Source: Burkholderiales bacterium (GTDB taxonomy: Bacteria > Pseudomonadota > Gammaproteobacteria > Burkholderiales > Casimicrobiaceae). From it: DNA of 64,000 nt. Positions 51,548 to 61,053 of this stretch are shown one piece after another; positions within the stretch are counted from its first letter, which is position 1; the number at the start of each line of letters is the position of its first letter. Location of the stretch: assembly GCA_020851235.1 (NCBI GenBank), contig JADZDD010000035.1, forward strand, positions 558,001 through 622,000, read 5' to 3'. Made by a program: the position numbers and the translations under genes. The notes below the pieces were generated by a model that searched no databases, had not been told where the DNA came from, and saw only the letters and a program-made list of their open reading frames with translations.

Positions 51548-53185
51548 CTAGATGCGTTCGTCGTAGCTGCAATTCCGTATATCGCACGCGATCACCGAGA
51601 ACCGATCTGCAAACAATGCCATCCGGAGTGCATCGGAAAGCGCCCCTCGATTGTCTACATCAAATCCAAGCCCCCCCAAGGCTCGCGCTACGCTCGCGAA
51701 GTCTGTCCCTCCGAATTGCACCCCAATCTTCCGACGTCTTCCCTTTCGTTGCTTCATCTCGATCAACGCAAGTGACTGATCAACGAAGACGACGCAAATG
51801 ATGGGAGTCTTTCTATCACGTGCAGTCGCCAGTTCCCCGAGGGTCATCTCGAATCCTGCATCCCCACTAAACGCCACGACCGGCCGCTCGGGGCTCGCAA
51901 GCTTCGCACCAATTGCTAATGGTACGGCGCAGCCCATCGTACACAGTCCAGTTGACTGCATCAGCCCGTGCGGCTCGGTACATTGCCAAACATGGCTCAA
52001 TAAGATTCGATGCGCGCCAACGTCAACACTTGCGACTGTATTGGCTGGCATTGTCTGTCGCACGGTATCGACTATCGCAGCTGGCCCCCATTCCTCATCT
52101 TTCCGGAATATCTCGCCTAATGCTTGCACCTTGGCCCCGAGCTCCGATGGAGTCCACTCCGTCTTGATCTGCTGTCCTGCGAACAACGCTAGCATCGTTT
52201 CGCCGATGTGCCCGATGAAACTCAAGGAAGCTTGATACATATAGTGTGTGTTCGGCGTTACGGCTGCCTCGATGACACGCGTTCTCGTCGGCCACAAATC
52301 CCGCCAGCCGACACGCATTTCAATTGGATCATAGCCCGCGAGCAGTATTAGATCAGCCTCTCGCAGTGCTCCGATAAGGATCTCGTCGGCCCTTGGTGAG
52401 AGTCCCGCACCACCAAGCACGAATGGTTCACGCTCATCAATAATCCCCTTAGCCTTGTACGTAGTGATGAGTGGCAAGTTATGTGCCTTTACCACAGCGG
52501 CCACTTGCGATGAACATTGCTGTGACAGGACCCCCACCCCTGCCAAAACGACCGGCTTCCGTGCTTGCGCAATCCATTCTCTCGCCTGCGAAAAGCTTTG
52601 CGACGGCGCAGGAGCCATTGGTGCCGGCCTAACACGACGTACCGAAACCACCGGTGACTCTTGTGTGCTCGCCACTGTGATTGGAACATCAATATGTACT
52701 GGCCCGGGCGGATCATCGAGTGCGATGGCTACCGCCTTGTCGATCATCATGTCGATTGCGCCACTAGCGGCAGTAAACGTCGCTTTCACGATCGGCTTAA
52801 ACGCTGCCGCGTGATCGAAGACCTGGTGCGTATAACTGTACGTCTCTGACGCGTCGATTCGTCCTGTGAGAAAGATCAGAGGTACCCGGTCCTGCTGAGC
52901 GTTTGCTACGACGTTGAACGCATTGGCCGCTCCTGGACCCACCGTCGCGATCAATACGCCGGGAGCGTGCGTCCGATGGAATGTCCCTTCGGCCATAAAG
53001 CCGCCGCAGTTCTCATGCTTAACCAAGACGAAGTCGATCCCTACCTCGCCGAGCGCATCTATCATGGTCAGCACTTCACCGCCAGGAATGCCGAAAGCAT
53101 ACCGCACCCCCGCTTCCTTGAGGCGTCGTGCGATCACTTGACCAGCGTTGGGCAGCGCCTTGGACTCGACTTCGACAGCCAACAT
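51548..53185 (-). CDS. ThDP-dependent enzyme, acetolactate synthase/2-oxoacid decarboxylase-like
   Basis: A 545-residue thiamine diphosphate enzyme. The N-terminal Pyr domain has GVRYAFGIPGGEVLTMID and the conserved Glu in VLVKHENCGGFMAEG; VGPGAANAFNVV follows. The central domain contains KPVVLAGVGVLSQQ. The C-terminal PP domain has the cofactor motif GDAGFEMTLGELATA, with VDQSLALIEM in place of the usual Asn-Asn end. It could decarboxylate a 2-oxoacid or act as a lyase; the substrate is not determined by sequence. Its ATG overlaps the acd stop by one base (TAATG), indicating coupled translation with the desulfinase-like gene. Confidence 0.85.
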   Translation of the reverse strand: MLAVEVESKALPNAGQVIARRLKEAGVRYAFGIPGGEVLTMIDALGEVGIDFVLVKHENCGGFMAEGTFHRTHAPGVLIATVGPGAANAFNVVANAQQDRVPLIFLTGRIDASETYSYTHQVFDHAAAFKPIVKATFTAASGAIDMMIDKAVAIALDDPPGPVHIDVPITVASTQESPVVSVRRVRPAPMAPAPSQSFSQAREWIAQARKPVVLAGVGVLSQQCSSQVAAVVKAHNLPLITTYKAKGIIDEREPFVLGGAGLSPRADEILIGALREADLILLAGYDPIEMRVGWRDLWPTRTRVIEAAVTPNTHYMYQASLSFIGHIGETMLALFAGQQIKTEWTPSELGAKVQALGEIFRKDEEWGPAAIVDTVRQTMPANTVASVDVGAHRILLSHVWQCTEPHGLMQSTGLCTMGCAVPLAIGAKLASPERPVVAFSGDAGFEMTLGELATARDRKTPIICVVFVDQSLALIEMKQRKGRRRKIGVQFGGTDFASVARALGGLGFDVDNRGALSDALRMALFADRFSVIACDIRNCSYDERI

Positions 53186-54423
53186 TACGTATTCCCTCGC
53201 GGACTCGACTCCGTCACCCTTTGGTTCGCCGGCCCCGTTATGTAGCCATCGCGCGTCTGGGGCAGTCTTCTCTGCAACAAGCTACCTGCCACTTGTGTTC
53301 GCAGAATCTGCGCGGTGCCTCCGGCGATTGTAAACATCCGTGCGTCGCGCACATGGCGTTCTAGCGGCATCGCTCGGGCATATCCCGAGGATCCGAACAT
53401 CTGCAGCGCGTCGTTCGTTACCTTATTCGCCATCTCCGCAGCAAATACCTTCGCTTGAGCGGCATGCATGACACTTGGAAAGCCGCCGTCCTCCGGGGTT
53501 GCCGCGCGGTACAGCAACAGACGCGCCGCCTCCAGTTGAATGGACATGTCGGCTAACATCCACTGGAGGCCTTGAAACTCCGCAATCGGCCGCCCAAACT
53601 GCTGCCGCTCGTTGACATAGGCCAGCGCCTCGTCGAAGGCGCACTGTGCGATGCCAAGTGCAACTGTGCCGGCTCCAACACGCTGCGCGTTATAGGCGCG
53701 CATCAGCGACGGGAAGCCGCGCCTTATCCCTCCAGGCGCCACGACCATCATAGATTTGTGCACCATCAGGTCGTCGAAGTGAAGGTGTGTCTCCGGGATA
53801 CCCCGTACGCCCATGGCAAGCGTCCGATCCGCCACCTTCAGTCCAACGGGGTCAGACGCGTCATGACGAACGACGATAAATCCAGTAATCCCCTGCTCCA
53901 CGCCGCCGTCAAACACCCTGGCAAACACCAAGTGCAACCTTGAAACACCGCCGCCCGTAATCCAATACTTTTGCCCATTTATGCGATAGTGATCCCCATG
54001 TCGATCAGCGCGGGTGGTCATCTCGCTAGCCGCGCTTCCAGCATTGGGCTCGGAGATGCAGATCGCCGGCTTGTCGCCATCAAGGACGCACGCGGCCGCG
54101 AGCTTCTTCTGCTCGTCAGTGCCATACGCCATCACAGCCCCAATTGCGCCAACGTTAGAATCGACCGTGATGCGGCCCATTGTTGCGCACGCCTGAGCCA
54201 TCTCTTCTATAACAAGCACAGTGTCCAAGTGGCTCATACCTTGTCCACCGTACGACTTCGGAATCATCATTCCCATAAAACCAGCATCGCGCAGCTTCGC
54301 GACGTTGTCCCATGGATATGCTTCAGTTGCATCGGTGCGCGCGGCCGTTGCAGCGAACTCTCCTTGCGCGAGTTCCCGTGCGGCGGCTTTCAATACACGC
54401 TGGTCATGAGTCAAAGGATACAC
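53185..54423 (-). CDS. acd: 3-sulfinopropionyl-CoA desulfinase-like protein (acyl-CoA dehydrogenase fold)
   Basis: A 412-residue FAD protein of the acyl-CoA dehydrogenase fold that lacks the catalytic base. Where dehydrogenases have Glu, this protein has Gly368 (in FTIAGGTAQILRTQ) and Gln247 (in AYNAQRVGAG), and Arg84 occurs in TMGRITVDSN. The same three features (Arg84, Gln246, Gly366) define the desulfinase AcdDPN7 of Advenella mimigardefordensis, which converts 3-sulfinopropionyl-CoA to propionyl-CoA and sulfite, and in which Arg84 is essential. FAD/substrate segments CISEPNAGSAASEM and KYWITGG are intact. It follows a decayed CoA-transferase gene that would supply its substrate and overlaps the ThDP gene. 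Confidence 0.88.
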   Translation of the reverse strand: MYPLTHDQRVLKAAARELAQGEFAATAARTDATEAYPWDNVAKLRDAGFMGMMIPKSYGGQGMSHLDTVLVIEEMAQACATMGRITVDSNVGAIGAVMAYGTDEQKKLAAACVLDGDKPAICISEPNAGSAASEMTTRADRHGDHYRINGQKYWITGGGVSRLHLVFARVFDGGVEQGITGFIVVRHDASDPVGLKVADRTLAMGVRGIPETHLHFDDLMVHKSMMVVAPGGIRRGFPSLMRAYNAQRVGAGTVALGIAQCAFDEALAYVNERQQFGRPIAEFQGLQWMLADMSIQLEAARLLLYRAATPEDGGFPSVMHAAQAKVFAAEMANKVTNDALQMFGSSGYARAMPLERHVRDARMFTIAGGTAQILRTQVAGSLLQRRLPQTRDGYITGPANQRVTESSPRGNT

Positions 54424-54459
54424 AGTGAATCTCCTAGTCTAAGTGTCAACTGAATCCCT

Positions 54460-55654
54460 GCCCGTAACCCAATCAATCGAGAAACACCCCATCGCGGTGC
54501 TCATTCTGGGGGGGGTGGATGACGGTATCTACCTGGCGTCTTTGAAGGTCTTAGGGGCGTAGCCAGCAGTCTCACGTTGCCTGTCACCGCGCTCCGATAC
54601 GCCATGGAGATCGCAGCGCCTCATGCTTGAACTTATCGATCGGAGAATACGCCCTCAAAGGTCTTCACGGACCCGCAACGCGCTCCCACCGCTTCGAGGA
54701 GGCCAAGCCACTCGTTACGCGGGCGCCTCGACAGGTTCTGCTCAATTCGCTTGCACAAGGGTTCCCGATTCTCTACGCGCTTCGCATTCGTAGCATAACG
54801 AGAACCCGAAGCCAGATCGAACAATCCAACACATTCGCAGAACTTTCGAAGCTGGATGCCGTCTTCAACTGCCAAAAATCATTGGCGATTCCGCCTCCTC
54901 GAACAGTTCCTAAGGGACGATGTCGGGATGGCCATGCCCACGACGAGGCGGATTGCACCCCGACAGTACAAAATTGCTTCGTGCATTTGCAAACCGTGCA
55001 ACTTGTGTATCCAGCAAGGAAACGCCGATTTGCCGACCCTCACCGGCAGCATCGCGATGGCGCGGGAATGCAAGAATGCCTATGGTCACGTACACGCCGG
55101 TCATAATATCTGCAATATATCTGCAATACCGACGCCCACTTTCGTGGGGCTCCCTGCCGACTCCCAGTCGAACTCATCCTAGCGTCCATGCGCTGACAAA
55201 GGAAGTCTCATCCCGACAGGTGAGCATACGGCCTCGTTTGGCCAAAGCCCGTGATCCTGCATTACACCAATCGCGGAAAGCGATCTCTCAGCTCATCGTA
55301 CGCCGATCCAGACTTTGCGCGCCCTCCTGCCTTATAGTTCTCCATGAGCAGATCTGCACGATCTATCAGCCGCAAGACTAGCTCCACCCCCGGGCTGGTC
55401 GTAATATTGATATCGATTGACGATTGAGCGCTTGTTCCGATTGGTGCAAAGATAAGGCGCGCGCTCTACCATCGGCCATCCATCAGACACGGTTACAAAT
55501 GGCGCCCCCGTGATCTCGTCTCATCACCTTCCAATGGCCTCTCGACCTTTGCAACGTCCGCATCAAGATCGCCTACAATCTGCGTGGCAGTCGGCCCCGC
55601 CAGATTCCTCGATAAGCCGAGTACTCGCACACCAGCAAGTGACATCGCGCTCAT
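54460..55654 (-). pseudogene. Decayed class III (CaiB/BaiF) CoA-transferase, act-like
   Basis: Minus-strand remnants of one CoA-transferase lie in order over about 1.2 kb in changing frames. The N-terminus (55493-55654; [20 protein letters not shown]) starts with ATGA overlap on the aminotransferase stop. Then come a piece with PYLCTNRNKRSI and PGVELVLRLIDRADLLMENY (about 55,260-55,470), ITGFGQTRPYAHLSG near 55,220, a middle block with MTGVYVTIGILAF and VSLLDTQVARFANARSNF (54,910-55,104), and a C-terminal block with RYATNAKRVENREPLCKRIE (54,633-54,875), tailing off near 54,460. At least four frame changes and several in-frame stops occur. Class III transferases include Act, which makes 3-sulfinopropionyl-CoA in Variovorax paradoxus TBEA6. 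Confidence 0.85.
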
Positions 55655-56850
55655 GATAGGCGGTCCAAAGCGATCCAAATTCGATCAATCGCTCGCTCCA
55701 AGTTCGCCTCGGAGGTCGCATACGACATCCTGATATGTCCCGGGGCGCCGAATCCAGACCCCGGGACTACAGCGACCCCATGCTCCAGTAGATAGTTGGA
55801 GAATTCAACATCACTTCCCAGTCTTTCGCCTTCGGGCGAGGAACGGCCAAGCAGAGCCTCGATGGATGGAAACAGGTAGAATGCGCCATGCGGCTTCGGA
55901 CAGGCTAAGGCGGGGATTTTCGCTAGCCACGCGAGCATGAGGTCGCGGCGAGCCTGAAGTCGTGCGCGACACTGGTATACGAACTCCTGTGAGCCGTCCA
56001 GTGCCGCAGCAGCCGCTGCTTGTGAGATTGAAGCGGTATGCGACGTGATCTGCATTTGCAACTTCGTCAGCGCCTCGATCAATGGCCTTGGGCCGCCCGC
56101 GAAGCCTACGCGCCATCCTGTCATTGCGTAGGCTTTCGACACACCGTTAACCGTGAGCGTACGCTCGCGGAGATTTGGCGCAACTTGCGCAACGGTGGCG
56201 AACATTCGGTCGTCAAATAGGATATGTTCGTAGATATCGTCAGCAAGGATCCAGAACTTCTTATATCGACTGGATTCGATCACGTCGGTCAGTGCCTTCA
56301 ATTGCTCCCGTGTGTACGCGGCACCGCTTGGATTGCTGGGGGAATTGAGGACGACCCACTTGGTCCGTTCATTGAGGGCGGCGTCCAGTGCCGCCGGCTC
56401 TAGCAGGAACGAGTCAACCAAGCGTGCCTCGACGGGCTTTAGGGTGCCGCCGTTTAGACTTATCATGTCAGCATACGACGCCCAGTAGGGGGTGGGTATG
56501 ATTACCTCATCACCCGGCGCGAGCGTGGCAAGGAATGCTTGGTACAGGATTTGCTTGGCGCCGCACCCGACGCTGATCTCACGTAAGTCATAGTCGAGAG
56601 CATTGTCCCTCCTGAACTTGCGCACGATCGCCTCGCGCAGAACAGTGGTGCCGTTTATTGGTGTGTACTTCGTCTCCCCTCTTGCGATTGCCTTCACGGC
56701 CGCAGCGCAGATGTGCTCCGGTGTCGCAAAGTCCGGTTCGCCAAGAGTTAGATCGACGACGTCCCTGCCCGCCGAGATTGCTTGACGCGTCCGCTCCGCC
56801 ATTTCCTGAATCGGCGACACCCGGAGACGTTCCATACGATCCGAGAACAC
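55651..56850 (-). CDS. Class I aminotransferase (aspartate aminotransferase-like)
   Basis: A 399-residue PLP enzyme starting with [17 protein letters not shown], the substrate-domain [14 protein letters not shown], the PLP Asp in [13 protein letters not shown], and the Schiff-base Lys in [17 protein letters not shown] with its following Arg are all present. It resembles type I-gamma aspartate aminotransferases, which act on dicarboxylic and sometimes other amino acids; cysteine sulfinate is a known alternative substrate of aspartate aminotransferases. It is the first gene of the acd operon and overlaps the CoA-transferase remnant by four bases (ATGA). Confidence 0.88.
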
Positions 56851-56974: not shown

Positions 56975-57904
56975 ATGTTTGGCTCCTCTTCGGACGCACT
57001 GATCTTGGTTACGTTGAAGCAACTCGAGCTCTTGGTGGCAATCGCGCAGACTCGTAGCATCTCAGCAGGCGGAGCGCGGATCGGCATGAGCGCGTCCGCT
57101 ACGAGTCATGCGTTACGCGCCCTAGAAGGCAATCTTCGAGTTGCGGTTGTGGATCGGCGAACCAAGGACTTCACGCTGACGGATGCCGGAAGTCGTGTGT
57201 TGCAACATGCACTTGATATCGTCACTTCGCTTAAGAGCATCGAACAAGAAGGCAACGCGGCCGCCGAACTAAAGTCTGGTGTGTTGCGTATTGGGTCTTT
57301 TGGAATAAGCTCGTCAGTAAAGATTCTGCCGAGTCTTATAGATCGATTTCAAATTCAATATCCAAATATCGAGATCTGCGTTTTCGAAGGACTCGATCAG
57401 GATGTTGAACAGGCACTTACTGAGGGGCGTATCGACCTTGGTGTTGTCGTTCTTCCGAAGCCCCAGTTTGACACGATACTGCTAGCCGTCGACGAGTTGG
57501 TAGCTGTGCTATCGGAATCGAGTCCACTTGCGCTGTACAAGCGAGTCGAACTTTACGAACTGACAAAATACCCCTTCATCATGACGCAGGCCGGCTCACA
57601 GGGCCTTGTGCGTAGACTCTTCGAGCGGGTCGGATGCGCGCCGCGCGTCACGCACGAACTTTCGCAACTCTCCTCGATCTTGGATTTCGTTCGGCGAGAT
57701 CGAGGTGTCTCAGTCGTTGCATCCCTAGCATTGCCGGAAAGCTTCCCTGGCGTTGTCACGCGACCCATTCGCCCGCGCACCCAGCGGCACATTTGCTTGG
57801 CGTGCCGAGATGAGACTCGCCTCACGGTGCCCGGTCGTGTGTTCTGGCAGTTAGCTCACGAGGCGAGGCCCGTTCGAATCCATCAAGCGACCGATGATCC
57901 GTAG
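56975..57904 (+). CDS. LysR-family transcriptional regulator
   Basis: A 309-residue LysR regulator. The winged HTH is near the start (LKQLELLVAIAQTRSISAGG, then SASATSHALRALEGNLRV), and the effector domain begins near residue 100 (SGVLRIGSFGISSSVKILPS). It is divergent from the aminotransferase-acd operon and probably controls it. Its last 83 bases overlap the end of the convergent amidohydrolase gene. The true start may be slightly downstream of 56975, because the first ten residues are not family-like. Confidence 0.88.
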   Translation: MFGSSSDALILVTLKQLELLVAIAQTRSISAGGARIGMSASATSHALRALEGNLRVAVVDRRTKDFTLTDAGSRVLQHALDIVTSLKSIEQEGNAAAELKSGVLRIGSFGISSSVKILPSLIDRFQIQYPNIEICVFEGLDQDVEQALTEGRIDLGVVVLPKPQFDTILLAVDELVAVLSESSPLALYKRVELYELTKYPFIMTQAGSQGLVRRLFERVGCAPRVTHELSQLSSILDFVRRDRGVSVVASLALPESFPGVVTRPIRPRTQRHICLACRDETRLTVPGRVFWQLAHEARPVRIHQATDDP

Positions 57905-59153
57905 CCCGTCGATCCACGACCACGCGCCCCTTCTTTATCACCTTTGCCACACAGTTGGTCGCGAAGCGGAATGCCGCCTGTTCGAAAGATGGCACATCGA
58001 GAATCACTAGGTCCGCCTGCTTCCCTGGCTCAAGGGAACCCAGGCGGTGGTGAAGGCCGAGAGCCATGGCCGCGTGGATGGTTCCCCCGCGGAGCGCTTC
58101 CTCGGGGGTCATACGATTTATTCGGCATCCGAGTGCCGTCGCCACCTGCATTGACTCGAGCCAGCACACCGGGCACTGGTCAGTCCCGACGGCGAGCGTC
58201 ACACCACTGGCACGTACCGCATTGATGTTAGTCGGTGACCGGTGGTTAACGATGAAATCAAACCCAGGGAACGTGACCGCCACCGTACCAGCCGCAGCAA
58301 GCGCTCTGAAGTCCTCCACTGTAGTATGATTCACGTGGTCGCACGAAGCCGCACCCATCTCGGCCGCCAAACGAGTGCCTCCGATATTGTTCTTGGCGTC
58401 GACATGTAGCTTCAACTTGAATCCCAGCTCACTCGCGCGCCTTAGGACGCGCTCTGTGTCCTTCAGGTTAAAGACGTTGGGATCGCAATAGACGTCGCAG
58501 AACTCGGCGAGTTGCCTGCTCGCGACTCGCGGCAACGCCTCCTCAAGGATCTCCGAAAGAAAGCGCTCCTTTGTCGAGCTTGGGGGGACGATGTGCGCGC
58601 CAAGATACGAGGCCACAATCTCTACCGGTACCAGTTTCCCCAGTTCTCGTGCCGCTTCCAACGATCGAATATCACTATCGGGCGTGAGCCCATAGCCACT
58701 CTTCGTCTCCAGCGTCGTGGTTCCCGCCTCGAGCATCCGACGCAGCCGCGGCAGCGACGCCATCACAAGATCGTCCACCGACAAGTCACGGTTTCGCGCG
58801 ATCGACGCCGGAACATCGAACGGCACGCCTTCCGCACGGAGACCTGCGTCATCCAGTCCTCGCATCCGTGCGAAGTACTCCCGACTCCGATCACCCCCGA
58901 AAACTAGGTGGGTATGACAATCCACGTAACCTGGAATTACCGTCCCTCCATCCGCATCAATTGTCCTTACGCTACGCTCCCCAATTCCCCGCATTACGTC
59001 GACGCTCGAGCCGACGGCGAGAATCGTCTCCCCCTCCAAGGCCACCACGCCACGATCAACCGCACCAACCCCTTGATCCCCGCTGCATGTAACAACTTGG
59101 GATGCGCCCGTTATTACTGTTGTTACCGCTGACGCGTCAACTCGGCAGCCCAT
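57822..59153 (-). CDS. Imidazolonepropionase-like amidohydrolase
   Basis: A 443-residue metal-dependent amidohydrolase. The metal site shows the H-x-H motif (His80 and His82 in YVDCHTHLVFGGDRSREYF), the later His in FKLKLHVDAK, CDHVNH, and the final Asp in AVGTDQCP; TTTLETKSGYGL is shared with HutI. The GGGI-containing loop that follows the HTH motif in true imidazolonepropionases is not seen, and no other hut genes are present. It therefore probably opens a cyclic amide other than imidazolone propionate. Its start overlaps the AhpD-like gene by 17 bases; its end overlaps lysR. Confidence 0.82.
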   Translation of the reverse strand: MGCRVDASAVTTVITGASQVVTCSGDQGVGAVDRGVVALEGETILAVGSSVDVMRGIGERSVRTIDADGGTVIPGYVDCHTHLVFGGDRSREYFARMRGLDDAGLRAEGVPFDVPASIARNRDLSVDDLVMASLPRLRRMLEAGTTTLETKSGYGLTPDSDIRSLEAARELGKLVPVEIVASYLGAHIVPPSSTKERFLSEILEEALPRVASRQLAEFCDVYCDPNVFNLKDTERVLRRASELGFKLKLHVDAKNNIGGTRLAAEMGAASCDHVNHTTVEDFRALAAAGTVAVTFPGFDFIVNHRSPTNINAVRASGVTLAVGTDQCPVCWLESMQVATALGCRINRMTPEEALRGGTIHAAMALGLHHRLGSLEPGKQADLVILDVPSFEQAAFRFATNCVAKVIKKGRVVVDRRATDHRSLDGFERASPRELTARTHDRAP

Positions 59154-59832: not shown

Positions 59833-61053
59833 TCAACGAACCTTTAGAGTGGCGATAATCTCATCCCTACCGTTCCTTATTTGATATAGTTGAATGTCGC
59901 GGCCGATCAGTTGCCTGTTCTGATCGAACTCGACGGCCGATCCAGCGCCGGAGTAGTTTATCTTCTCGCCGGCTCGTAACGCCTTGAGTCCATCCAGAAC
60001 GTTATAAACGACCTTCTTCCCGGGACCCGTACTGACGTCATAAATCGCTCGCTTGACCGCTTCCGCCTCCGTAGTACCTGCCTTCTCAATCGCCAGCGCT
60101 AGAACGGAGATTTGGTCACGACACGCGGTTCCGTACGGATGTTGAATCTGCCCGTTGTCTTGCAATCCTGCTTCCTGCAGATACTGTTTGTATGCCGGGC
60201 TGTCGAGGGGCGGAATCGGGAACCCATGCAAGATACCGTCCGCTGCTGCACCAACTGCCTTCTTGAAAGGTTCGCTTGCTGCGAATGTCACTGTAATCAC
60301 CTGACCTTTATAGCCGGCTCGGTAGATATCCTTATACACCGAAGTGAAATCTGTAACATACGCCGGAATAAATACTGCATCTGGGTTCCCCTCCAGCAAA
60401 CGGGAAACTTCCGCCTTATAAGACGCCTGATTGGCATTGTAGTAAAAAGGCTTTTCCAAGAGGCGTCCAGGTCCGATCGCCTCCTCAAATCCGGTCAGAA
60501 TGGATCTAGTGAAGTCGTTGTTCAGGGCCATTAACTTGAACTGTTTGAAGCCTCGATCTATTGCCATCTTTCCGAGCGCCCGACCCCACACCGGATTAAG
60601 TATCTGGAAGTTAAAGCACAGACCTTTTGTGTCGCGAATAGGAATATCATCGGACGAAGAGGTGCACATTTGGATTATGTTGGCGCTTTGACACTTCGGC
60701 ATGATGCCGAGCGTTACCGACGACGCCCAAGTACCCAATATCGCTATCACCTGATTCACATTTATTAGCTTATCGGCAGCGCGGGTTGCGGTCTCTGGGT
60801 TTGTCTCGCCATCTTCTTGGGTTAGCTTAATCTGGCGATTCAGTACTCCACCCGACGCGTTAATCTGATCCACGGTTCGCCTAATCGCCGCGGCCATGTT
60901 GCCCCCATAAGGCGCCCCCCCGCCAGTATTGGGTGTCAGCGAGCCAATACTAATTGCGTCGTTCGCGTATAGGAGTCTAGGACTGAGTGTCGATCCGAGA
61001 GCGGCGATAGCTGATCCGGTGAGAATACGGCGACGCGAAGTGGAAAAGTCCAT
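59833..61053 (-). CDS. livK: Branched-chain-type ABC transporter substrate-binding protein (LivJ/LivK-like)
   Basis: A 406-residue periplasmic binding protein. The N-terminus has a twin-arginine-like leader (STSRRRILTGSAIAALGS), cleaved near LLYA. The mature protein starts ISIGSLTPNTGGGAPYGGNM and has the type I Liv fold (ILGTWASSVTLGIMPKCQ, KAVGAAADGILHG). GGAGGA lies 7 bases before the ATG. The ligand cannot be read from sequence; family members bind amino acids, amides and many small organic acids. Confidence 0.9.
   Translation of the reverse strand: MDFSTSRRRILTGSAIAALGSTLSPRLLYANDAISIGSLTPNTGGGAPYGGNMAAAIRRTVDQINASGGVLNRQIKLTQEDGETNPETATRAADKLINVNQVIAILGTWASSVTLGIMPKCQSANIIQMCTSSSDDIPIRDTKGLCFNFQILNPVWGRALGKMAIDRGFKQFKLMALNNDFTRSILTGFEEAIGPGRLLEKPFYYNANQASYKAEVSRLLEGNPDAVFIPAYVTDFTSVYKDIYRAGYKGQVITVTFAASEPFKKAVGAAADGILHGFPIPPLDSPAYKQYLQEAGLQDNGQIQHPYGTACRDQISVLALAIEKAGTTEAEAVKRAIYDVSTGPGKKVVYNVLDGLKALRAGEKINYSGAGSAVEFDQNRQLIGRDIQLYQIRNGRDEIIATLKVR

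What the first reader, a model, noticed from the sequence alone, without database searches (positions are those of the whole stretch)
53185..54423. Acyl-CoA dehydrogenase-fold desulfinase with the Arg84/Gln/Gly signature
The sequence shows Gly368 at the dehydrogenase catalytic-base position (AGGT instead of x-E-G-T), Gln247 at the alternative base position, and Arg84. The crystal study of AcdDPN7 (Advenella mimigardefordensis) reported exactly such residues (Gln246, Gly366, essential Arg84) and no dehydrogenase activity. Flanking segments (TMGRITVDSN, YNAQRVGAG, FTIAGGTAQILRTQ, LPQTRDGY) look desulfinase-like as well. This points to sulfite release from 3-sulfinopropionyl-CoA rather than to fatty-acid oxidation, so an automatic 'acyl-CoA dehydrogenase' label would be misleading.
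Basis: partly seen in the sequence, partly recalled or inferred. Interest (0 to 1): 0.78.

Follow-up and report, generated by a model that had tools for sequence, protein, structure and literature searches.

The report
Sulfite-releasing enzyme in unusual gene cluster
The gene encodes a known kind of enzyme that cuts sulfite off a sulfur-containing CoA compound rather than burning fatty acids, but here it sits in a gene cluster that suggests a different, untested source for its substrate, and its usual partner gene has decayed.

Summary
The ORF at 53185-54423 (minus strand, 412 aa) has Arg84, Gln247 and Gly368 as stated. It passes NCBI's 3-sulfinopropanoyl-CoA desulfinase model (642.7 vs 600 bits); its best PDB match is AcdDPN7. 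The residues are invariant in 81 of 81 sequences (80 relatives and the window), one clade apart from seven acyl-CoA dehydrogenase paralogues. The enzyme is a new member of a known family that NCBI already names.

Two further findings. The CoA-transferase gene (act) between aminotransferase and desulfinase is decayed (7 in-register stops, frameshifts), while its neighbours stay constrained. And the desulfinase overlaps a thiamine-diphosphate enzyme gene that lies near it in 27 of 80 related loci, none of which shows a 3-mercaptopropionate dioxygenase in the fetched flanks. That enzyme matches 10 of 16 contact positions reported for a 2-oxoglutarate decarboxylase. Cupriavidus necator N-1 has aminotransferase, ThDP enzyme, succinate-semialdehyde-type dehydrogenase, Act and desulfinase in one region. 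I infer a substrate feed from homocysteine sulfinate, the sulfinate analogue of glutamate; this is untested.

The parts
53185..54423 (-). 3-sulfinopropionyl-CoA desulfinase (acyl-CoA dehydrogenase fold), 412 aa
   Evidence: NF042439 642.7 bits > cut-off 600; PDB 5af7 best; R84/Q247/G368 in 81 of 81
51548..53185 (-). ThDP-dependent enzyme of the acetolactate-synthase fold, 545 aa; its start overlaps the desulfinase stop by one base; probable 2-oxo-acid decarboxylase
   Evidence: ORF, Pfam TPP_enzyme N/M/C, fold, residues; none of the 25 best of 54 NCBIfam matches shown is over its cut-off; relative near the desulfinase in 27 of 80 loci
54424..55654 (-). decayed class III CoA-transferase (act) remnant
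   Evidence: tblastn with L009 and L026 Act; 7 in-register stops and frameshifts in an alignment to L009; pieces with stops also
55651..56850 (-). class I aminotransferase, 399 aa
   Evidence: Pfam Aminotran_1_2; best NCBIfam PRK06107 aspartate transaminase, 475.2 bits, below its cut-off of 617; same place in L009 and L026
56975..57904 (+). LysR-type regulator, divergent from the aminotransferase
   Evidence: Pfam HTH_1 and LysR_substrate; same place in L009 and L026
57822..59153 (-). HutI-like amidohydrolase; no other close copy and no urocanase gene found in the genome
   Evidence: TIGR01224 346.1 > 298.15 bits
59137..59772 (-). carboxymuconolactone-decarboxylase/AhpD-like protein
   Evidence: PF02627; relatives in L009 (78%) and about 2 kb from the desulfinase in L084 (67%)
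59833..61053 (-). substrate-binding protein of a branched-chain-type ABC transporter
   Evidence: PF13458; same order in L009
61093..62007 (-). LivM-type permease
   Evidence: PF02653
62016..62879 (-). LivH-type permease (name by eye)
   Evidence: ORF; 79% relative in L009
62876..63610 (-). LivF-type ATPase (name and start by eye)
   Evidence: ORF; 76% relative in L009
63585..63998 (-). LivG-type ATPase (name by eye), cut by the window end
   Evidence: open ORF; 79% relative in L009

Best explanation
The protein is a 3-sulfinopropionyl-CoA desulfinase. It binds 3-sulfinopropionyl-CoA in an acyl-CoA dehydrogenase fold that has lost the catalytic Glu, and releases sulfite, leaving propionyl-CoA. 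Shown here: family membership by model, residue signature, clade, gene context and the decay of act. Inferred from characterised relatives: the reaction. Since the neighbouring act is dead, 3-sulfinopropionate would have to be activated by something else, for instance SucCD as in Advenella DPN7 (PMC5373536, passages) or another of the genome's CoA-transferases. Propionyl-CoA could go on through the acyl-CoA mutases present. The 0.85 below is for the enzyme activity only; how its substrate is made here is a separate question (first rival).
For: NF042439 equivalog over cut-off. 5af7 is the nearest solved structure, E 4.6e-193 against 4.3e-71 for the next. R84, Q247 and G368 in 81 of 81 sequences; one clade with 100/99 support apart from 7 own paralogues. 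Codon-position identity to L009 of 0.89/0.93/0.49 fits purifying selection. A desulfinase 71% identical lies on C. necator N-1 pBB1, with a TauE/SafE-type sulfite exporter gene about 4 kb upstream; that strain's Acd was reported to desulfinate 3SP-CoA (recalled, Schurmann 2014 in J Bacteriol; not held). One sucC over cut-off and acyl-CoA mutases over cut-off in the genome.
Against: No assay. The local CoA-transferase is decayed and no Mdo was found, so the textbook supply of substrate is missing; a shifted substrate is possible. Of 100 genomes searched (own and relatives) only the own one is over the cut-off, so the gene may be a recent arrival.
Confidence: 0.85

Rival explanations
1. Feed route A (my preferred supply model): the aminotransferase and the ThDP enzyme make the acid. 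Homocysteine sulfinate (sulfinate analogue of Glu) is transaminated to 4-sulfino-2-oxobutyrate (analogue of 2-oxoglutarate), decarboxylated by the ThDP enzyme to 3-sulfinopropanal (analogue of succinate semialdehyde), oxidised to 3-sulfinopropionate (analogue of succinate), made a CoA ester, and desulfinated. All steps are inferred.
For: ThDP enzyme in 27 of 80 desulfinase loci. In 398 sampled genomes (own included) desulfinase 7, ThDP family 14, both 5 (p 5e-7, or 1e-5 without the own genome), and in 3 of those 5 the two genes lie far apart. Of 16 contact positions given for the 2-oxoglutarate decarboxylase MaKGD (PMC10418658 passages), 10 are identical in the window's enzyme at a constant offset of 7, and 8 of them (A384, H385, M410, G434, D435, D462, L467, K471) are the same in 44 of 44 family members; K386 is Arg in 44 of 44. 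C. necator N-1 pBB1 has aminotransferase, ThDP enzyme, SSADH-like dehydrogenase (TIGR01780 606 bits, below its cut-off of 646) and an ArgE-type deacylase in a row, with Act and desulfinase 4-5 kb upstream.
Against: No substrate is shown. In 0 of the 27 ThDP loci was an N-1-type aldehyde dehydrogenase found in the fetched flanks, and none in the window. Nine of 14 ThDP genomes lack the desulfinase at the threshold used, so the ThDP enzyme also has another role. Five of the 16 MaKGD positions differ (Q254, A408, G436, Y465, Y531); AlsS keeps the Tyr that the window's enzyme lacks. The K386 and K471 contacts rest on docking in that paper's text. No KGD sequence was aligned. The 44 members are related, not independent.
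Confidence: 0.42
2. Feed route B: the textbook route. 3-mercaptopropionate is oxidised by a dioxygenase encoded elsewhere, and the operon neighbours are incidental.
For: The two systems whose papers I saw work so (PMC5373536 and PMC6370202, passages). Mdo lies near the desulfinase in 12 of 80 loci.
Against: PF05995 finds nothing in the own genome or in the 6 other desulfinase genomes of the phylum sample; no Mdo hit in the window. Caveat: the one Mdo that I tested scores only 27.2 bits on that model (cut-off 23), so a divergent one could be missed.
Confidence: 0.2
3. The ThDP enzyme is a plain 2-oxoglutarate decarboxylase or an acetolactate-type synthase, and its link to the desulfinase is regulatory or historical.
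For: It lies on the acetolactate-synthase fold (AlsS first). In the 13 phylum-sample ThDP loci outside the own genome it sits with an Act-type gene in 8 and with TPR and OpgC-like genes in 11, and with the desulfinase in 1.
Against: Below the acetolactate synthase cut-offs listed (best 345.9 vs 509). Co-occurrence with the desulfinase well above chance.
Confidence: 0.27
4. The protein is an ordinary short-chain acyl-CoA dehydrogenase.
For: Pfam acyl-CoA dehydrogenase domains.
Against: No Glu at either of the two base positions; tree and equivalog model.
Confidence: 0.03

Closest known systems
AcdDPN7, Advenella mimigardefordensis DPN7
   Same: Aligned over residues 1-401 at 644 bits; same R84/Gln/Gly signature and same IAGGTAQILRTQ and LPQTRDGY stretches
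   Different: In DPN7 acd sits with mdo and an acyl-CoA transferase of family III (PMC5373536, figure-legend passage); here no Mdo was found and act is a remnant
AcdA/Act/Mdo cluster of Variovorax paradoxus TBEA6 (PMC6370202, passages)
   Same: Desulfinase with CoA-transferase; a putative acetolactate synthase (IlvX) is in the region and raised on TDP and 3SP
   Different: IlvX deletion left growth on TDP unchanged; whether IlvX is a relative of the window's ThDP enzyme was not tested
Cupriavidus necator N-1 pBB1 cluster (L168)
   Same: LysR, Act (71% to the L026 Act), desulfinase (71%), aminotransferase (60%), ThDP enzyme (58%)
   Different: Act open; adds aldehyde dehydrogenase and deacylase and a TctC-type binding protein; no relative of the window's Liv genes in the 25 kb seen
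ThDP 2-oxoglutarate decarboxylase of Microcystis (MaKGD, PMC10418658, passages)
   Same: 10 of 16 reported contact positions identical at constant offset, plus Glu50 as Glu58
   Different: K386 is Arg; Q254, A408, G436, Y465 and Y531 differ; no direct sequence alignment made
LysR-AT-Act-desulfinase-ThDP operon of L009 and of Streptomyces coffeae (L026)
   Same: Same gene order
   Different: Act open in both

Membership tests
3-sulfinopropionyl-CoA desulfinase | Score over the NCBIfam equivalog cut-off | tested here: met
   642.7 vs 600 bits
3-sulfinopropionyl-CoA desulfinase | Arg84, Gln and Gly in place of the dehydrogenase base residues | tested here: met
3-sulfinopropionyl-CoA desulfinase | Groups with desulfinases apart from acyl-CoA dehydrogenases | tested here: met
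   81 rows one clade 100/99, 7 own paralogues outside; outgroup branches are long and no characterised dehydrogenase was in the tree
3-sulfinopropionyl-CoA desulfinase | Sulfite and propionyl-CoA from 3SP-CoA, no dehydrogenase activity | not testable with these tools
   needs an assay
3-mercaptopropionate (DTDP/TDP) catabolic cluster | 3-mercaptopropionate dioxygenase gene present | tested here: not met
   no PF05995 hit in own genome, no Mdo hit in window; the model is weak for Mdo
3-mercaptopropionate (DTDP/TDP) catabolic cluster | Intact CoA-transferase act beside the desulfinase | tested here: not met
   remnant with 7 in-register stops and frameshifts
acyl-CoA dehydrogenase (functional) | Glu at one of the two usable base positions | tested here: not met
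   Gln247 and Gly368
catabolic acetolactate synthase (for the ThDP enzyme) | Score over an acetolactate synthase cut-off | tested here: not met
   best 345.9 vs 509 bits among the 25 of 54 matches shown
ThDP 2-oxoglutarate decarboxylase (for the ThDP enzyme) | Residues reported to contact 2-oxoglutarate and ThDP | tested here: inconclusive
   10 of 16 identical at constant offset, K386 as R, 5 differ; no KGD sequence aligned

The most novel reading that the evidence does not exclude
The operon is a dedicated, undescribed route that degrades homocysteine sulfinate (or a close C4 amino sulfinate) as a mirror of glutamate to 2-oxoglutarate to succinate semialdehyde to succinate to succinyl-CoA, ending in desulfination. 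This route, not 3-mercaptopropionate oxidation, would be the older and wider setting of 3SP-CoA desulfinases. The link to the ThDP enzyme is spread over many branches of the desulfinase tree (27 rows, at least 9 changes), whereas the 12 Mdo-linked rows all lie in one 30-row group; ancestry itself was not reconstructed.
Probability: 0.33. Interest if true: 0.72.

Novelty: new variant of a known kind. Interest (0 to 1): 0.5.

Why it matters
The desulfinases in the papers that I saw were studied for breakdown of thio-acids used as polythioester precursors. What natural compound selected for them is open, as far as I know. A recurring set of ThDP decarboxylase and desulfinase, in part with aminotransferase and CoA-transferase, in Pseudomonadota, in a Streptomyces and on contigs binned to other phyla, gives a concrete, testable candidate: an oxidised sulfur amino acid. 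It would also suggest a function for an enzyme family that public records name only thiamine pyrophosphate-binding protein.

Tried and rejected
Ergothioneine or histidine route for the HutI-like gene: dropped, since no gene of the urocanase family (TIGR01228) was found in the genome. Structured RNA near the gap: no Rfam match up to E 1. Repeats in the gap: two weak inverted pairs only; the gap turned out to be the act remnant. TPR-protein partner in the own genome: not found, and the tool warns that an empty answer without a positive control shows nothing. Aldehyde dehydrogenase near the ThDP gene as a rule: not supported; of the loci compared only N-1 has it beside the ThDP gene, and L070 has a 52% relative downstream of a desulfinase without the ThDP gene. 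First gene calling by longest ORF gave many shadow ORFs and was replaced; names of genes are by eye unless a family search is cited.

Against my reading: ThDP genes occur without the desulfinase in 9 of 14 genomes. By PF05995 Mdo was absent also from the two desulfinase genomes without the ThDP gene (G237, G340), and the only one of 16 genomes with a hit was the ThDP-only G473, so lack of Mdo does not discriminate there. The exclusion of Mdo and ThDP in 80 loci (0 shared; 0.4% by chance if independent) is confounded by phylogeny and by contig ends. The 80 loci are the best-scoring of 584 found. For the ThDP residue counts L083 (partial) and L020 (no stretch over 400 aa) were left out and a second copy of L080 was dropped; 44 members remain, two of them (L046, L076) cut at contig ends.

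Papers: PMC5373536, PMC6370202 and PMC10418658 seen as passages only; PMC3911169 not held. The report on AcdN-1 (Schurmann 2014) is recalled. Search listings. From titles and the abstract starts shown, none of these listings presented a homocysteine-sulfinate route to 3-sulfinopropionate; this covers open-licence PMC papers only.
Full report
Observation. The ORF at 53185-54423 runs on the minus strand, 412 aa, from a GTG with AGGAG upstream. NCBIfam NF042439, 3-sulfinopropanoyl-CoA desulfinase, scores 642.7 bits against a curated cut-off of 600.

Relatives and tree. A scan of species genomes returned 80 loci, the best of 584. In 81 of 81 desulfinases (80 plus the window) positions 84, 247 and 368 are R, Q and G. 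Seven acyl-CoA dehydrogenase paralogues of the same genome, of 17 other matches, never carry all three, although one has Q at 247 and another has G at 368. The 81 form one clade (100/99) with the paralogues outside. The window's nearest row is L009, a Gammaproteobacteria MAG, at 86-88% identity. The family is rare near home: of 100 genomes searched, own and relatives, only the own one is over the cut-off; in the phylum sample 7 of 398 are, own included.

The decayed neighbour. L009 and Streptomyces coffeae (L026) have LysR, aminotransferase, Act, desulfinase and ThDP enzyme in this order. In the window the Act place, 54424-55654, has no ORF of 90 aa or more on that strand but aligns with Act proteins; blastn against L009 gives 65.6% identity over 1434 nt, which includes short ends of the two flanking genes. 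In a global alignment to the L009 gene there are 7 in-register stops and many frameshifting gaps, the exact number depending on alignment settings. Codon-position identity to L009 is 0.79/0.81/0.47, against 0.89/0.93/0.49 for the desulfinase, 0.82/0.90/0.44 for the ThDP enzyme and 0.82/0.87/0.46 for the aminotransferase. I infer that act worked for much of the divergence and then decayed, while its neighbours stayed under selection. Outside the remnant, class III CoA-transferases of the genome are at most 44% identical to the L026 Act. There is one sucC over cut-off, and SucCD activates 3SP in Advenella (PMC5373536, passages).

The ThDP partner. Its start overlaps the desulfinase stop by one base. 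A relative at 45% identity or more lies in 27 of 80 loci; Mdo at 30% or more lies in 12 of 80, and no locus shows both in its flanks. Of 26 copies measured (two cut at contig ends), 24 start within -30 to +300 nt of the desulfinase stop; L058 overlaps by 44 nt, and in L030 the gene lies over 5 kb upstream. In 398 phylum genomes the desulfinase is in 7, the ThDP family in 14 and both in 5; three of those five hold the two genes far apart. By model it is no acetolactate synthase (345.9 vs 509 bits), though its predicted fold (mean pLDDT 87.9) matches AlsS best. For the Microcystis 2-oxoglutarate decarboxylase a paper gives contacts from docking on a model, with mutants for some ThDP contacts (PMC10418658, passages). 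Moved by 7, 10 of 16 of these positions are identical in the window's enzyme; 8 are identical in 44 of 44 family members (A384, H385, M410, G434, D435, D462, L467, K471); K386 is Arg in 44 of 44; Q254, A408, G436, Y465 and Y531 differ in the window. By the alignment, AlsS has Ala and Gln at the two basic positions but keeps the Tyr. Two unrelated ThDP enzymes lack the set; one of them is sulfoacetaldehyde acetyltransferase.

Clusters elsewhere. On C. necator N-1 pBB1 (L168) a TauE/SafE-type gene is followed further on by LysR, Act, desulfinase and a TctC-type binding protein, then about 4 kb after the desulfinase by LysR, aminotransferase, ThDP enzyme, an SSADH-like aldehyde dehydrogenase and an ArgE-type deacylase. 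A relative of the deacylase is in L030 at 57%, and weaker ones lie upstream of the desulfinase in L081 and L082. In the 13 phylum-sample ThDP loci outside the own genome, Act-type genes are near in 8, a TPR protein and an OpgC-type membrane protein in 11, a YeeE/YedE-type sulfur transporter homologue in 4, and the desulfinase in 1. The TPR protein also lies in 7 of 80 desulfinase loci, none with the ThDP gene. In genome G146 the desulfinase is close to sulfoacetaldehyde acetyltransferase and phosphotransacetylase genes. In Mesorhizobium loti pML2037 it is followed by a sulfate-exporter-family gene.

Mechanism. The desulfination step is inferred from characterised relatives. The supply step is my inference: aminotransferase, ThDP decarboxylase, an aldehyde dehydrogenase (beside the ThDP gene only in N-1) and CoA activation turn a C4 amino sulfinate into 3SP-CoA, step by step like glutamate into succinyl-CoA. 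In the window an amino-acid-type ABC transporter and a HutI-like amidohydrolase precede the operon. The genome has no urocanase gene by TIGR01228, so HutI is unlikely to serve a full histidine route. Propionyl-CoA could leave through acyl-CoA mutases.

Verdict. As an enzyme this is a new member of a known family that NCBI already names in public records. As a gene set, with the ThDP partner, no detected Mdo and a dead act, it is a variant of the known desulfinase pathway whose substrate source is open.

Noticed in passing
window 54424-55654: Decayed class III CoA-transferase gene between intact neighbours; open copies exist in L009 and L026.
   Followed up: yes
window 57822-59153: HutI-like amidohydrolase over its model cut-off in a genome where no urocanase gene was found; true substrate unknown.
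   Followed up: partly
L147, L149-L158: Conserved set of ThDP enzyme, 450-aa TPR protein and OpgC-type membrane protein (11 of 13 loci), often with a class III CoA-transferase; in L147 also MdoG-type, glycosyltransferase and rhodanese-domain genes. Function undescribed as far as I know.
   Followed up: partly
L161 8175-14342: Desulfinase close to a sulfoacetaldehyde acetyltransferase (Xsc) and phosphotransacetylase cluster.
   Followed up: partly
L173: Mesorhizobium loti: desulfinase near a sulfate-exporter-family gene, a gamma-glutamyl-GABA hydrolase family gene, a TPR protein, a glutamine-synthetase family gene and a P450.
   Followed up: no
L010 and L013: Two nearly identical desulfinases on contigs binned as planctomycetes are sister to a betaproteobacterial group in the tree; transfer or misbinning.
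   Followed up: no
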